From: an alpha proteobacterium AAP38
GTDB lineage: Bacteria; Pseudomonadota; Alphaproteobacteria; Azospirillales; Azospirillaceae
Direction of reading: 5' to 3'
DNA: 64,000 nucleotides
NCBI GenBank assembly: GCA_001296005.1
Contig: LJHR01000035.1
Coordinates: 124,001 to 188,000 of the forward strand
The notes beneath the pieces are model-generated. The model saw nothing but the letters and a program-made list of their open reading frames with translations, ran no database searches and was not told the origin of the DNA. Positions within the stretch are counted from its first letter, which is position 1; each line of letters begins with the position of its first letter. A program made the translations under genes and the position numbers. Below, piece by piece: positions 24,631-29,249 of the stretch.

Positions 24631-24651
24631 TGAAACATGAATCAGGTTTCA
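24631..24651. promoter_or_regulatory. 21-bp near-perfect palindrome
   Basis: TGAAAC-A-TGA-A-TCA-G-GTTTCA is symmetric apart from one pair. It lies between the end of the flavin reductase gene, whose stop codon it includes, and the start of the alpha/beta hydrolase gene, and has no T-tract, so an operator is more likely than a terminator. Its outer half-sites resemble the TGAAACA..TGTTTCA arms of the intergenic repeats. Confidence 0.5.
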
Positions 24652-25137
24652 ACCCCGACCATCATTCAGCGTGGCGTAGCCACCCCGGTAATAGAGCAGC
24701 GGCGCGCCGGGCTGGCTTGCAAAGCCCAGTACGCGGCCGACCAGGATCGTGTGGTCCCCGCCTTCATGGATGGCATGACGGGTACAGTCCAGCACGGCCA
24801 ACGCGCCCTGGATCAGGGGCGCGCCCCCCTGCCCGATCACTGCGGCCACACCATCCCAGCGCGCGGCATGCGGGGCGCGGGCGAAGGTGTTGGACAAGCC
24901 CTGCTGTTCGGCGGACAGGATGGACAGGGCGAAGCCCGGCGCCTCCAGAAAGGCCGACAGGCTTTCCGACCGGTTATCCAGGCAGAACAGAACCAGGGGC
25001 GGATCAAGCGACACCGAGGTGAAGGAATTCACCGTCAGGCCCACGGGCCTGCCATCGGCCCCGGCCGCCGACGCAATACAGACACCGGTGGCGAAGCAGC
25101 CCAGGGTGTCACGAAAGGCACGATGGTCGAAACTCAT
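24649..25137 (-). CDS. Flavin reductase-like FMN-binding protein
   Basis: A 162-aa protein from the ATG at 25137. It has the flavin reductase (RutF/HpaC-like) pattern: FRDTLGCFATGVCIASAAG, VGLTVNSFTSVSLDPPLVLF with the FMN-binding Ser/Thr, LSILSAEQQGLSNTFA, and the C-terminal HTILVGRVLGF and PLLYYRGGYATL. Such enzymes supply reduced FMN to a partner monooxygenase; no monooxygenase is present nearby. It is divergent from motB and followed by the alpha/beta hydrolase pair. Confidence 0.88.
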   Translation of the reverse strand: MSFDHRAFRDTLGCFATGVCIASAAGADGRPVGLTVNSFTSVSLDPPLVLFCLDNRSESLSAFLEAPGFALSILSAEQQGLSNTFARAPHAARWDGVAAVIGQGGAPLIQGALAVLDCTRHAIHEGGDHTILVGRVLGFASQPGAPLLYYRGGYATLNDGRG

Positions 25138-25168
25138 ACCGGGCAAGCTCCTGTCCTTACATAAATAG

Positions 25169-25178
25169 GGGTTAACCC
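25169..25178. promoter_or_regulatory. Short palindrome between flavin reductase and motB
   Basis: GGGTTAACCC is a perfect 10-bp palindrome in the 134-bp divergent region. It contains a TTAAC half of the kind seen in CtrA sites, but the second half-site is absent. Only a weak regulatory suggestion. Confidence 0.25.
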
Positions 25179-25271
25179 GAGGTAGGGCATGCGCGCAAGG
25201 CCGCAAGGGCCGTGACCCACGCCAAACAGCTTGCTACACTGCACCATCGATCAGCGTACCGGGATGGCATC

Positions 25272-26429
25272 GTGGCAGGCGGCGAAGAAAAGGCCCCCAT
25301 TGTTATCAAGAAGATCAACAAGGGCGGCGAAGGGCATCATGGCGGTGCCTGGAAGGTGGCCTATGCCGACTTCGTGACCGCGATGATGGCCTTCTTCCTG
25401 CTGCTGTGGCTTCTGAACGTGACCACAGCCGAACAGAAGATGGGCATCGCCGATTATTTCAGCCCAGCCAGCGCGTCGAAACAGACAAGCGGGTCCGGCG
25501 GCATTCTGGGCGGCCAGACCATCCGCGTGGATGGCGCCATGGTCAATGCCAGCAGCCCGCCCGGCGTCACCGTCCCCACCCCCACCATGCCCGCCGCCGC
25601 CAATTCGGATGAGCAGACGGACGACATGCAGGAAAGCTCCAGCGGGCGTCCGACGGAGAAGGACTCCACCGGCAAGGGGGCCGGCGACAAGGAAGGTGGC
25701 TGGACCCGTGGCGATGTGGTGAACGGTCTGGCCGTCCTGGAACGCGCCGGGGAGAAGGATGCCGCCGACAAGAACAAGGACGGTCAGGTAGACGAGCAGG
25801 AACTGAAAGAAGCCCTGGCCAAGCATGAGGACGCACAGTTCGCCAAGGCCGAAGCAGAGCTGCGCCAAGCCATCCAACAGATCCCCGAACTGCGCAACCT
25901 GGCCCAGAACCTGATCATCGACAAGACACCGGAAGGCCTGCGTATCCAGTTGGTCGATCAGGAAGGCTATTCCATGTTCCCGTCGGGCAGCGCCAAGATG
26001 CAGCCACAGACGGCCCAGCTTATGTCTCAGGTGGCGCAGGCGGTTTCCAGCCTGCCCAACAAATTGTCCATCAGCGGCCATACTGACAGCATCCCGTTCG
26101 GCGCCGGCGCGTCCTACACCAACTGGGAACTGTCCTCCGACCGGGCCAATGCCACTCGCCGCGCGCTGGAAGCCATGGGCATCAGCGACACCAGAATCGA
26201 GACCGTGGTGGGACGCGGGGACCGCGATCACCTTTTCAAGGATGATCCCAACTCTCCCCGTAACCGCCGCATCTCCATCGTGCTGCTGCGCGACAGCCTG
26301 ATGGCGGGCAACCGCCCTGCCAACGCGCCGACGCCGGCCCCCGACGGCGCCGGCAGCACCAACCCGCCCGCCGCCGCCCCACGTGCAGCGGTACAGCCGG
26401 CACCGGCAGTCGTGGGGACGTCGCGGTAA
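25272..26429 (+). CDS. motB: Flagellar stator protein MotB with an EF-hand in its linker
   Basis: About 385 aa from a GTG at 25272, where the text reads GGEEKAPIVIKKINKGG as usual for alphaproteobacterial MotB; an in-frame GTG at 25212 is possible. The membrane helix AYADFVTAMMAFFLLLWLL carries the proton-binding Asp, and TAEQKMGIADYFSP is the plug region. A long Ser/Pro-rich linker includes DKNKDGQVDEQE (residues 166-177), a perfect EF-hand loop. The OmpA domain follows (LSISGHTDSIPFGAG, NWELSSDRANATRRALE, NRRISIVLL). It anchors the stator to peptidoglycan. No motA is adjacent, which is unusual. Confidence 0.93.
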   Translation: MAGGEEKAPIVIKKINKGGEGHHGGAWKVAYADFVTAMMAFFLLLWLLNVTTAEQKMGIADYFSPASASKQTSGSGGILGGQTIRVDGAMVNASSPPGVTVPTPTMPAAANSDEQTDDMQESSSGRPTEKDSTGKGAGDKEGGWTRGDVVNGLAVLERAGEKDAADKNKDGQVDEQELKEALAKHEDAQFAKAEAELRQAIQQIPELRNLAQNLIIDKTPEGLRIQLVDQEGYSMFPSGSAKMQPQTAQLMSQVAQAVSSLPNKLSISGHTDSIPFGAGASYTNWELSSDRANATRRALEAMGISDTRIETVVGRGDRDHLFKDDPNSPRNRRISIVLLRDSLMAGNRPANAPTPAPDGAGSTNPPAAAPRAAVQPAPAVVGTSR

Positions 26430-26449
26430 GCAGGCCTGTTTTGCGACAT

Positions 26450-26492
26450 CCTACGCAACCGAGTGAAACACGAACGTGATCCGTGTTTCATA
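26450..26492 (-). repeat. 43-bp palindromic intergenic repeat, copy 3
   Basis: Read on the plus strand: CCTACGCAACCGAG, then TGAAACA at 26464-26470 and TGTTTCA at 26484-26490. This is the reverse complement arrangement of copies 1 and 2, with the same 43-bp register and the same 13-bp spacer length. Confidence 0.75.
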
Positions 26493-26547
26493 GTTCAAAG
26501 ATGACACTTCCGAACGACAATCCGGTCAGCCTGACCTATGGCTGCTT

Positions 26548-26590
26548 CGCACGCAACCAAGTGAAACACAAAAACGATGTTGGTTTCACA
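26548..26590 (-). repeat. 43-bp palindromic intergenic repeat, copy 4
   Basis: CGCACGCAACCAAG, then TGAAACA at 26562-26568 and GGTTTCA at 26582-26588. One arm base differs from the other copies. It starts 98 bp from copy 3 in the same orientation. Confidence 0.7.
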
Positions 26591-26742
26591 GTCCGTGGCT
26601 CACCCGCGCCGCAAGCCGGTGGCTGCGGATGTACGGACGTAGGTGTGGCGTTGATAGGGTGATGATAGCGCAAAGGGGACGGGAAGTCAGCAATCCCGCT
26701 ATGGGGCCAGCCCTCATCCCCACCCGGTCAGGCCCAACCCGG

Positions 26743-27720
26743 TCAGGCGTTGTAGTCCAGGCCCCAGGGTTCGTACTGGTCGCGTTCTTCGGCCCAGTTT
26801 TCCCGCAGCTTCACGAACAGCATCAGGTGAACGGGGCGGCCCAGGAATTCGGCCATCTCGACACGGGCAGCCGTGCTGATCTGTTTGATACGGGCGCCAC
26901 CCTTGCCCAGGATGATGGCCTTCTGCGTGTCACGCTGGACATAGATGACCTGACCGATGCGGACGGAGCCGTTCTCAAACTCCTCCCACGTCTCGGTCTC
27001 CACCGATGTCGCGTAGGGCACTTCCTGATGCAGTTGCAAGAACAGCTTCTCACGCGTGATTTCGGCGGCCAGCAGGCGTTCGGGCATGTCCGACAACTGA
27101 TCGGGCGGATAGAGCCAGGGGCCTTCCGGCACGGACGCGGCGAAGAACTTCAACAGCCCTTCCAGACCGTCGCCGGTCAGGGCGGAAACCATGAAGGTCT
27201 CCGTGAACACGTCGAATTCGGCAAATTCCGCAGCGAGCGCCAGCAGGCGTTCCCGCTTGATCAGGTCGATCTTGTTCAAGACCAGCACGGCCTTGCGACC
27301 CGCTTCCTTAAGCCGTTCCACGATGCCGCGCGTATCGTCATCGATGCGCTTCTGCGCGGCGTCGAACAGCACGGCCACCTGATCGGCATCGGTCGCACCC
27401 TGCCAGGCGGCGGCGACCATGGCGCGTTCCAGACGCTTTTTCGGTGTGAAGATGCCGGGCGTGTCGACATAGAGAATCTGGCTGTCGCCGGCCATGCCGA
27501 TACCCAGCACACGGCTCCGCGTGGTCTGGACCTTGGGGCTGACGATGGAGATCTTGGACCCGACAAGCGCGTTCAGCAGGGTGGACTTGCCCGCGTTGGG
27601 CGCCCCCACCAGGGCCACGAAGCCGCAGCGCGGATGGGTGGGGGCCGGCCGGGCCGGCGCGTCGCCGTTGGTGTCCTGGCCTGAAAGAAAACGGGAAACG
27701 ATATCGTCGCTGTCGGTCAT
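26743..27720 (-). CDS. era: GTPase Era
   Basis: A 325-aa essential GTPase that binds the 3' end of 16S rRNA in small-subunit assembly. It has G1 GAPNAGKSTL, G3 DTPGIF, G4 LNKIDLI and a C-terminal KH domain (KAIILGKGGARIKQISTAAR). It directly follows rnc on the minus strand with adjacent stop and start. In many alphaproteobacteria recO comes next; here the neighbour is the convergent motB and no recO is present in the window. The N-terminus has a ~25-residue extension. Confidence 0.96.
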   Translation of the reverse strand: MTDSDDIVSRFLSGQDTNGDAPARPAPTHPRCGFVALVGAPNAGKSTLLNALVGSKISIVSPKVQTTRSRVLGIGMAGDSQILYVDTPGIFTPKKRLERAMVAAAWQGATDADQVAVLFDAAQKRIDDDTRGIVERLKEAGRKAVLVLNKIDLIKRERLLALAAEFAEFDVFTETFMVSALTGDGLEGLLKFFAASVPEGPWLYPPDQLSDMPERLLAAEITREKLFLQLHQEVPYATSVETETWEEFENGSVRIGQVIYVQRDTQKAIILGKGGARIKQISTAARVEMAEFLGRPVHLMLFVKLRENWAEERDQYEPWGLDYNA

Positions 27721-28398
27721 TTACGTCCTGATCCGGGAAAGCAGTGCTTCGGCGGCGATCTTTTCCGCCGCGCGTTTTGAGGGGCCGGTTGCCACCACCG
27801 GTTCAAACCCCTCCACAGTCACGCTGACCTGGAAAATGGGGGCATGGTCCGGGCCGGTACGACCGATATCCGTATAAAGCGGCAGTTTGCGCCCGCGCGC
27901 CAGCGCCCATTCCTGAAGGCCGGTCTTCGGGTCCTGCGGGGGTGCCGCCTTCGCCCCCTCCAATGCCGCATCCCAATGCCGGCGGATGAAGCCAGCCGCC
28001 GCCGGCAGACCGCCATCCAGATACAGCGCGCCGATCACCGCCTCGCACGCATCGGCCAGGATCGCCGGCTTCACATCGCCCGCCTGTTCACCGGGCGCCA
28101 GGCGCAGATACTGCCCCAACCCGATGCGACCGGCCACGACCACCAGGGCCTCGGCCCGGACCAGCGCCGTCAGGCGGCGGGCCAGGGCGCCTTCCTGTTC
28201 CTTGGGGAACCGTTCCAGCAGCCATTCGGCCACGACCAGACCCAGGACGCGGTCGCCCAGGAATTCCAGCCGTTCATAACCCTTGCCCACCTTGGCCCGG
28301 TTGACCCCGCCCACCGACGGATGGGTCAAGGCCTCGTTCAGGCGGGAGACATCCTTGAAACGATGGCCCAGGACCTCCTGCAACGCATCCAGTTCCAT
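27721..28398 (-). CDS. rnc: Ribonuclease III
   Basis: A 225-aa double-strand-specific endonuclease that processes rRNA precursors and some mRNAs. The catalytic signature ERLEFLGDRVLGLVVAEWLL is followed by DACEAVIGALYLDGG, and the C-terminal dsRNA-binding domain spans about residues 155-225 (TGLQEWALARGRKLPLY, ATGPSKRAAEKIAAEALL). The ATG at 28398 overlaps the lepB stop as TGATG; the codon before it is a TTG. It sits in the lepB-rnc-era order typical of the class. Confidence 0.96.
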   Translation of the reverse strand: MELDALQEVLGHRFKDVSRLNEALTHPSVGGVNRAKVGKGYERLEFLGDRVLGLVVAEWLLERFPKEQEGALARRLTALVRAEALVVVAGRIGLGQYLRLAPGEQAGDVKPAILADACEAVIGALYLDGGLPAAAGFIRRHWDAALEGAKAAPPQDPKTGLQEWALARGRKLPLYTDIGRTGPDHAPIFQVSVTVEGFEPVVATGPSKRAAEKIAAEALLSRIRT

Positions 28399-29249
28399 CA
28401 ATCAACCCTTTCCCAGAACCGTTCGGTGCGGATGGCCGAACCCCAGCGCCAGAAGCGCCAGAGGCTTTCCTCCTCCTTCACCGACAGGAAGATAGTGGTG
28501 GCACGGCCCACCAAATTCTCGACAGGGATGAAGCCCACCACCTCCGGCACGCGGCTGTCCTGTGAGTTATCGCGGCTGTCGCCCATGCCGAAGATATAGC
28601 CGGGCGGGACCGTGAAGACCGGCGTGTCATCCAGCAGTCCCTGGTCGCCCGACATCTCGATCACCGGATGCTGACGCCCGCCGGGCAGGGTTTCGATATA
28701 TTGCGGGGCCGTGAAGGCGCCGCCGAACCCTTCATGCAGCACGAAATCCGGCACCCGGATGCGGGCCGCCATCTCCCCGTTCACATAGAGGGCGCCGCCA
28801 ATCATCTGCAACCGGTCGCAGGGCAGACCCACGATGCGCTTGATATAATCGACGCTGGTATCCTTGGGCAGCTTGAACACGGCCACGTCGCCGCGTTCGG
28901 GCAGGCTGCCGAACAGGCGGCCAGGGGCGGCCTTGCAGTCCTTGGTTACCGGCGGGGCCGCATCACCAAAGCGCAGGAACCCCGGCAGCGAAAAGCGGCT
29001 GTAGCCGTAAGAGGCCTTGTTCACGAACAGATAGTCGCCCACCAGCAGGGTGGGGACCATCGATCCGCTGGGGATGTTGAACGCCTCAAATGTCAGGGTC
29101 CGAACGCCCACGACCACCAGGATGGTGGCCAGGATGATGCGCAACGTCTCGCCCCAGCCGCTGCTGATATGGTGCGGATGCGTTTCCACCAGCGGGGGCA
29201 GCGGGTCGGGGGCAGGACGGGACGGAGGCGGCTGCCGGCGTAGATTCAT
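28398..29249 (-). CDS. lepB: Signal peptidase I
   Basis: A 283-aa inner-membrane serine protease that cleaves signal peptides after export. One N-terminal transmembrane segment (TLRIILATILVVVGVRTLTF) is followed by the catalytic Ser in FNIPSGSMVPTLLVGDYLFV. The general-base Lys is in VDYIKRIVGLPCDR, and the GDSRDNSQDSR box lies near the C-terminus. It has a Pro-rich cytoplasmic leader of ~30 residues. It lies between acpS and rnc. Confidence 0.95.
   Translation of the reverse strand: MNLRRQPPPSRPAPDPLPPLVETHPHHISSGWGETLRIILATILVVVGVRTLTFEAFNIPSGSMVPTLLVGDYLFVNKASYGYSRFSLPGFLRFGDAAPPVTKDCKAAPGRLFGSLPERGDVAVFKLPKDTSVDYIKRIVGLPCDRLQMIGGALYVNGEMAARIRVPDFVLHEGFGGAFTAPQYIETLPGGRQHPVIEMSGDQGLLDDTPVFTVPPGYIFGMGDSRDNSQDSRVPEVVGFIPVENLVGRATTIFLSVKEEESLWRFWRWGSAIRTERFWERVD

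What the first reader, a model, noticed from the sequence alone, without database searches (positions are those of the whole stretch)
25767..25802. Perfect EF-hand calcium loop inserted in the MotB linker
The codons read DKNKDGQVDEQE, which satisfies every EF-hand loop position (D1, N3, D5, G6, hydrophobic 8, D9, E12). A helix follows it (LKEALAKHEDA). It sits between the plug and the OmpA domain of the canonical stator protein, on the periplasmic side. Ca2+ in the periplasm could stiffen or shorten the linker and so gate stator anchoring or torque. I do not recall this in well-studied MotB proteins.
Basis: partly seen in the sequence, partly recalled or inferred. Interest (0 to 1): 0.7.

Follow-up and report, generated by a model that had tools for sequence, protein, structure and literature searches.

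The report
Calcium-type loop on flagellar stator switch
In a small group of bacteria, the protein that anchors the flagellar motor to the cell wall carries a conserved calcium-binding-type loop joined directly to the helix thought to switch the motor unit on, which suggests that calcium outside the cell could tune swimming; metal binding itself is untested.

Summary
In detail: window 25767-25802 encodes DKNKDGQVDEQE inside the only MotB found in this genome. It is not a chance run. In at least 20 of the 82 family genomes searched the orthologous MotB carries the loop. Ligand positions 1, 3, 5, 6, 9, 12 hardly change (pN 0.014, pS 0.87) while the positions between them vary (pN 0.32), almost as freely as the linker in front (pN 0.41). 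A MotB from another alphaproteobacterial order has a similar loop at the same place; grouping it with the others is rejected, so two gains are likely. The loop keeps a fixed 20-residue distance to the RQAIQ motif in 20 of 21 loci. Its exit helix matches Salmonella MotB alpha-1, whose ordered-to-disordered change is the proposed activation switch (PMC9093738). Best reading: a periplasmic Ca2+ site that caps and stiffens alpha-1 and so biases stator activation and wall anchoring. Metal binding is inferred from sequence; regulation is a hypothesis. Of 142 distinct MotBs parsed, 122 lack the loop. The loop scores below Pfam's EF-hand cut-offs and some members seem to lack an entering helix, so I call it an EF-hand-type loop, not an EF-hand domain.

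The parts
25212..26429 (+). motB, flagellar stator B subunit (405 aa; GTG start as listed; a GTG at 25272 is also possible, since matches to the less close relatives begin near residue 20)
   Evidence: only MotB found in the genome
25311..25466 (+). MotB_plug segment: transmembrane helix and plug, residues 34-85
   Evidence: 67 bits
25470..25697 (+). variable, predicted disordered linker (model residues 65-140, pLDDT under 50)
25707..25766 (+). entering helices (model 144-156 and 160-163); sequence not conserved across the loop-bearing clade
   Evidence: Nitrospirillum rows differ in sequence here
25767..25802 (+). EF-hand-type loop DKNKDGQVDEQE, residues 186-197
25794..25880 (+). exit helix = helix alpha-1 of the peptidoglycan-binding region (model 173-201)
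   Evidence: model 174-337 aligns with Salmonella MotB 102-266 (2zvy_B)
25974..26267 (+). OmpA-like peptidoglycan-binding domain, residues 255-352

Best explanation
This MotB carries one EF-hand-type loop that binds a periplasmic divalent cation, most likely Ca2+, and whose exit helix is the same continuous helix as alpha-1 of the peptidoglycan-binding region. Ca2+ ties the loop's Asp/Asn/Glu side chains together and so caps and stabilises the N-terminal part of alpha-1. In Salmonella and Vibrio, rearrangement of alpha-1 is the proposed switch between the compact, closed stator and the extended, wall-bound, ion-conducting one. Ca2+ would therefore bias when, and how firmly, a stator unit engages the wall and the motor. 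Shown: sequence, conservation, selection, position on alpha-1, a separate second occurrence. Inferred: metal binding, choice of Ca2+, effect on alpha-1, effect on motility.
For: Ligand positions are nearly invariant (1, 5, 6 and 12 in 20 of 20; 3 is N in 19 and D in 1; 9 is D in 19 and S in 1) while the positions between them vary. Codons at ligand positions do change synonymously (pS 0.87, pN 0.014, 19 rows), so the residues are being held. Pfam EF-hand_1 matches 20 of 20 clade members at E up to 0.1; in a control of five it matches L192 (16.1 bits, E 0.008) and none of four loop-less MotBs. A second, phylogenetically separate loop lies at the same 20-residue distance from RQAIQ. The model has helix - loop 164-172 - helix 173-201 at block pLDDT 80-88 over 151-200, and its exit helix aligns with Salmonella alpha-1. 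Alpha-1 as activation switch: PMC9093738 passages.
Against: No metal is modelled and no binding was measured. The loop is single and unpaired within the chain; lone EF loops can be weak (recalled). Pfam scores stay under the curated cut-offs for the window protein and for L192. A fragment folded from one sequence gave only pLDDT 60 and no PDB match. Most relatives read, including Azospirillum, work without the loop, and five same-genus genomes carry a second MotB without it.
Confidence: 0.5

Rival explanations
1. Static structural metal site: the loop binds Ca2+ permanently and only gives the linker a firm joint; at natural Ca2+ levels it is always full, so nothing is sensed or gated.
For: Same sequence evidence; many secreted EF-type loops (such as dockerins) are structural (recalled).
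Against: It does not explain why a lineage would need a metal joint at the switch helix when relatives do without; but nothing here separates it from the regulatory reading.
Confidence: 0.27
2. The site prefers another cation: Mg2+, or a lanthanide as in lanmodulin, whose loops also carry D at position 9 (recalled).
For: Position 9 is D in 19 of 20 rows, S in L026; lanmodulin is among the weak PDB sequence matches of the fragment (E 0.097).
Against: The best sequence matches are ordinary Ca2+ proteins (SCaMC-1, CDPK-type kinase, troponin C), themselves weak (best E 4e-4). Lanmodulin's Pro at position 2 (recalled) is absent from all 20 rows.
Confidence: 0.1
3. No metal: DGx(V/I/L)DExEL is simply a good acidic N-cap for alpha-1 that resembles an EF loop by convergence.
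For: Some loop-less MotBs have a similar half-motif just before alpha-1 (L090 DDGTIDESA, L074 MDGQISDGEL).
Against: Capping does not need D at 1, N/D at 3 and D at 5, yet these are as fixed as the cap half, with synonymous change at the same codons; the outlier L192 has all of them too.
Confidence: 0.1
4. Chance or neutral linker sequence shared by descent.
For: The linker just before the loop is loose and fast evolving (pN/pS 0.84).
Against: Ligand positions pN 0.014 against pS 0.87; shuffled linkers give the pattern in 18 of 42,600; a separate second occurrence.
Confidence: 0.02

Closest known systems
Canonical MotB/PomB stator B subunit (Salmonella MotB, 2ZVY; L119P form 5Y3Z/5Y40)
   Same: Plug, alpha-1 helix and OmpA-like domain; alpha-1 aligns with the exit helix here
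   Different: Salmonella MotB has no calcium-type loop in front of alpha-1 in the stretch aligned
Single EF-hand-type loops with only an exit helix (dockerin type) and lanmodulin loops
   Same: 12-residue D-x-[DN]-x-DG-x-hydrophobic-D-x-x-E loop followed by a helix
   Different: One copy joined to a stator switch helix, not a repeat or a binding module; the dockerin comparison is recalled, not run
PilY1 of type IV pili (Pseudomonas aeruginosa)
   Same: An EF-hand Ca2+ site in an envelope motility protein that modulates pilus extension and retraction; Ca2+ raises mechanical stability (PMC11891296, passages)
   Different: Unrelated fold (beta-propeller) and machine
Paenibacillus sp. TCA20 MotA1/MotB1
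   Same: A stator once linked to Ca2+ (PMC11940548, abstract and passages)
   Different: There Ca2+ was proposed as the driving ion, later reported as H+-driven in a chimera; here the site is in the periplasmic linker, outside the channel

Membership tests
MotB stator subunit | MotB_plug / transmembrane segment | tested here: met
   PF13677 67 bits, cut-off 24
MotB stator subunit | C-terminal OmpA-like domain with a MotB fold | tested here: met
   PF00691 56.2 bits, cut-off 27.2; best Foldseek match 2zvy_A, E 5.7e-14
NCBIfam NF006548 (PRK09041) MotB equivalog, a narrower group than MotB | Curated cut-off score | tested here: not met
   270.5 bits against a cut-off of 277, the best NCBIfam hit; just short, so I file it as MotB by Pfam and fold, not under this equivalog
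MotB stator subunit | Partner MotA in the genome | tested here: met
   TIGR03818 347 bits over its cut-off, on contig C56, not adjacent; a second hit of 52 bits is below the cut-off
EF-hand | 12-residue loop with ligand residues at 1, 3, 5, 9, 12, Gly at 6 and a hydrophobic residue at 8 | tested here: met
   (patterns from memory)
EF-hand | Pfam EF-hand curated cut-off | tested here: not met
   Window protein: EF-hand_1 22 bits against 25.4; EF-hand_5 18.1 against 25.9. For this reason I do not file it as an EF-hand domain
EF-hand | Exit (F) helix starting inside the loop end | tested here: met
   helix 173-201 starts at loop position 10
EF-hand | Entering (E) helix | tested here: inconclusive
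   Predicted here (144-156, 160-163), but the Nitrospirillum rows have a Gly/Ser-rich stretch instead
EF-hand | Ca2+ binding | not testable with these tools
   needs protein
EF-hand | Pairing with a second EF loop | not tested
   One loop per chain; pairing across the MotB dimer is possible but only single chains were modelled

The most novel reading that the evidence does not exclude
The flagellar stator itself is a direct sensor of extracellular Ca2+: two EF-type loops, one on each MotB of the dimer, pair on the periplasmic side and lock or release alpha-1, so that external Ca2+ sets how many stator units engage the wall. This input was invented at least twice at the same joint.
Probability: 0.3. 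Interest if true: 0.82.

Novelty: new variant of a known kind. Interest (0 to 1): 0.63.

Why it matters
[quoted passage not shown] A natural metal loop joined to alpha-1 would give an external handle: add or remove Ca2+ and watch stator engagement. It would also be a further case, beside PilY1, of Ca2+ acting on a bacterial motility machine through an EF-type site, here on the flagellum.

Tried and rejected
Chance match: rejected by shuffles and by codon analysis. Horizontal transfer of one loop-bearing MotB into the outlier G173: not favoured, since L192 groups with its own order's MotBs when the linker is left out. A single origin with many losses is not formally excluded; the AU test rejects only a common clade. 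General alphaproteobacterial feature: rejected, 20 of 142 distinct parsed MotBs carry the loop. In the phylum-wide profile search 25 of 398 genomes matched, 24 besides the window's own. Of these 24, only two cover loop columns from the start: G187 (columns 4-51, a MotB without the loop; L232) and G616 (columns 2-30, a small 144-aa protein with several EF loops, not a MotB; L237). The rest start at column 8 or later; I did not read each of them. Nine loci were not parsed by my motif script (L002-L004, L014, L015, L165, L181, L184, L189); L014 and L015 were read and lack the loop, L002-L004 are hits to the OmpA part only, and L165, L181, L184 and L189 stay unread. I did not read every Azospirillum MotB among the 82 family genomes. 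The fragment folded alone was too weak and gave no PDB match; it was folded without an alignment, a poor choice on my part. The structural second look spans mainly model residues 182-337, so it says little on the loop itself; no EF-hand protein appears among its 50 rows. One scan of viral contigs with a window fragment matched nothing. Literature on Niveispirillum and calcium gave nothing relevant (listing only).

Full report
What is there. The codons at 25767-25802 (+) read DKNKDGQVDEQE, residues 186-197 of a 405-aa MotB (ORF 25212-26429). Pfam gives MotB_plug 34-85 and OmpA 255-352, with weak EF-hand matches over the loop (EF-hand_1 22 bits, E 1e-4, cut-off 25.4). NCBIfam's best hit is MotB PRK09041, 270.5 bits against a cut-off of 277. 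It is the only MotB found in the genome: the other three hits cover the OmpA part only. The genome has one MotA over the family cut-off, on another contig, and a second, weaker hit below it, so this is the stator B subunit as far as the assembly shows. EF-hand_5 matches three places in the genome at E 0.001 or better, none of them this gene, so EF-type motifs are not common there.

Conservation. In the same genus 10 of 11 genomes gave a MotB match at E 1e-40; in the family 80 of 82. Reading the linkers shows the loop in 20 loci from 20 of the 82 genomes: ten of genus g1, seven of g11 and one each of g6, g7 and g12. The MotBs read from other genera (g2, g3, g4, g5, g9, g10, g13) lack it; not every g3 (Azospirillum) genome was read, and g8 gave no match. 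The second MotB type in five same-genus genomes (L014-L018) lacks it as well.

Selection. In the 20-row alignment loop positions 1, 5, 6 and 12 are invariant, 3 is N with one D, and 9 is D with one S, while 2, 4, 7 and 11 take many residues, 8 is V, I or L, and 10 is E in 18 of 20. L025 is misaligned by MAFFT at positions 10-12; read directly it is DKDGDGRLDAEE. I dropped L025 and computed pN and pS over 19 rows: ligand positions pS 0.868, pN 0.014; the other six loop positions pS 0.520, pN 0.316; variable linker before the loop pS 0.486, pN 0.407; alpha-1 pS 0.527, pN 0.173. So inside a fast-evolving linker the would-be ligands are frozen.

Chance and census. A strict EF pattern occurs in 20 of 142 distinct MotBs parsed from all loci then held, and in 18 of 42,600 shuffled linkers; for the window linker alone, in 48 of 100,000 shuffles. 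A PROSITE-like pattern (from memory) hits 19 of 156 distinct MotBs, once each, just before alpha-1. L025 does not match it because its residue 13 is Q. Pfam EF-hand_1 matches 20 of 20 clade members at E up to 0.1; in a five-member control L192 matches, weakly (16.1 bits), and four loop-less MotBs do not.

A second occurrence. L192 (genome G173, a different alphaproteobacterial order by the search tool's grouping) has DKDKDGSLDEEE. Of the nine MotB loci read from that order, L207 is the same gene and the other eight, L208 of the same genus among them, lack the loop. In a tree of 141 MotBs without the linker, the 19 distinct Azospirillaceae loop rows form one group (SH-aLRT 96) and L192 sits with its own order next to L208 (SH-aLRT 95); two changes are needed and are forced by well supported branches. 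In a 61-row tree, holding all 20 together is rejected (p-AU 2.6e-8). Two gains in the same place is the simplest account; one gain with many losses is possible. From loop position 12 to the RQAIQ motif of alpha-1 the gap is 20 residues in 20 of 21 loci, L192 among them, and 23 in L025, whereas the length of the linker before the loop varies.

Structure. AlphaFold2 with the 20-row alignment gives mean pLDDT 61 and pTM 0.49, with low confidence at 1-29 and 50-140, but block means of 79.5 or more (80, 82, 85, 86, 88) across 151-200. It shows helices 144-156 and 160-163, a gap over 164-172 and a helix 173-201 (window residue = model residue plus 22). Foldseek's best match is the periplasmic domain of Salmonella MotB, 2zvy_A, E 5.7e-14. 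VIA-align puts model 174-337 on 2zvy_B 102-266 (Z 16.6, rmsd 3.6, 162 aligned), so the exit helix is alpha-1, and by that offset Salmonella L119 falls near window residue 212-213, about 16 residues after the loop; the sequence alignment fits this.

How it may work. The review PMC9093738 (abstract, section list and passages seen) states that alpha-1 is a long helix in the compact MotB dimer, is disordered in the L119P form that binds peptidoglycan, that this mutant stator conducts protons strongly, and that cross-linking alpha-1 to the core reversibly blocks motility; how the signal reaches this region is given as an open question. A Ca2+ loop whose last ligand, Glu 12, is already part of that helix would stabilise its first turns when metal is bound. 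The simplest prediction is that Ca2+ favours an ordered alpha-1 and shifts the balance between compact and extended stators; the sign of the effect on swimming cannot be predicted with confidence. A permanently filled structural site is the main rival.

Known or new. No paper in the open-licence library holds MotB, EF-hand and stator together, nor EF-hand, stator, flagella and peptidoglycan. Listings for EF-hand with flagellar motor (6 papers), EF-hand with OmpA and flagell* (1 paper), EF-hand with dockerin and periplasm (1 paper), MotB with calcium-binding (15 of 24 listed) and five stator and calcium terms (20 of 27 listed) show no such report by title or abstract start. Of these papers I opened only PMC11940548 (abstract and passages) and PMC11891296 (passages). 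Subscription papers and preprints were not searched. PilY1 is a precedent for a Ca2+ EF-type site in a motility machine (PMC11891296). I rate this a new variant of a known kind: an ordinary MotB with a conserved, apparently twice-gained calcium-type loop on its switch helix.

Noticed in passing
window 26453-26494 and 26551-26592: Two 42-nt direct repeats 98 bases apart just after motB (76% alike), each with an imperfect palindrome GTGAAACAC...GTTTCA. A pattern fitted to the first copy occurs only there in the genome. Possibly an operator or terminator pair.
   Followed up: partly
window 24649-28401: motB stands alone: a flavin-reductase-like ORF before it and Era-, RNase III- and LepB-like ORFs after it on the other strand (named by eye); motA lies on another contig.
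   Followed up: partly
L090, L091, L074, L126 (linker just before alpha-1): Some other alphaproteobacterial MotBs show an acidic half-motif before alpha-1 (DDGTIDES, SGELDEGAL, MDGQISDGEL and similar), a possible stepping stone from which a full loop could evolve.
   Followed up: no
L126: A contig labelled as an Anaerolineae MAG carries a MotB whose linker is nearly identical to that of the alphaproteobacterial L074: probably mis-binned.
   Followed up: no
L128, L143, L148-L150, L153 and Azospirillum-type MotBs: These carry GIPGQxxGExLxDFAxRV-like segments in the linker instead of the loop, in some of them more than once: another lineage-specific linker module.
   Followed up: no
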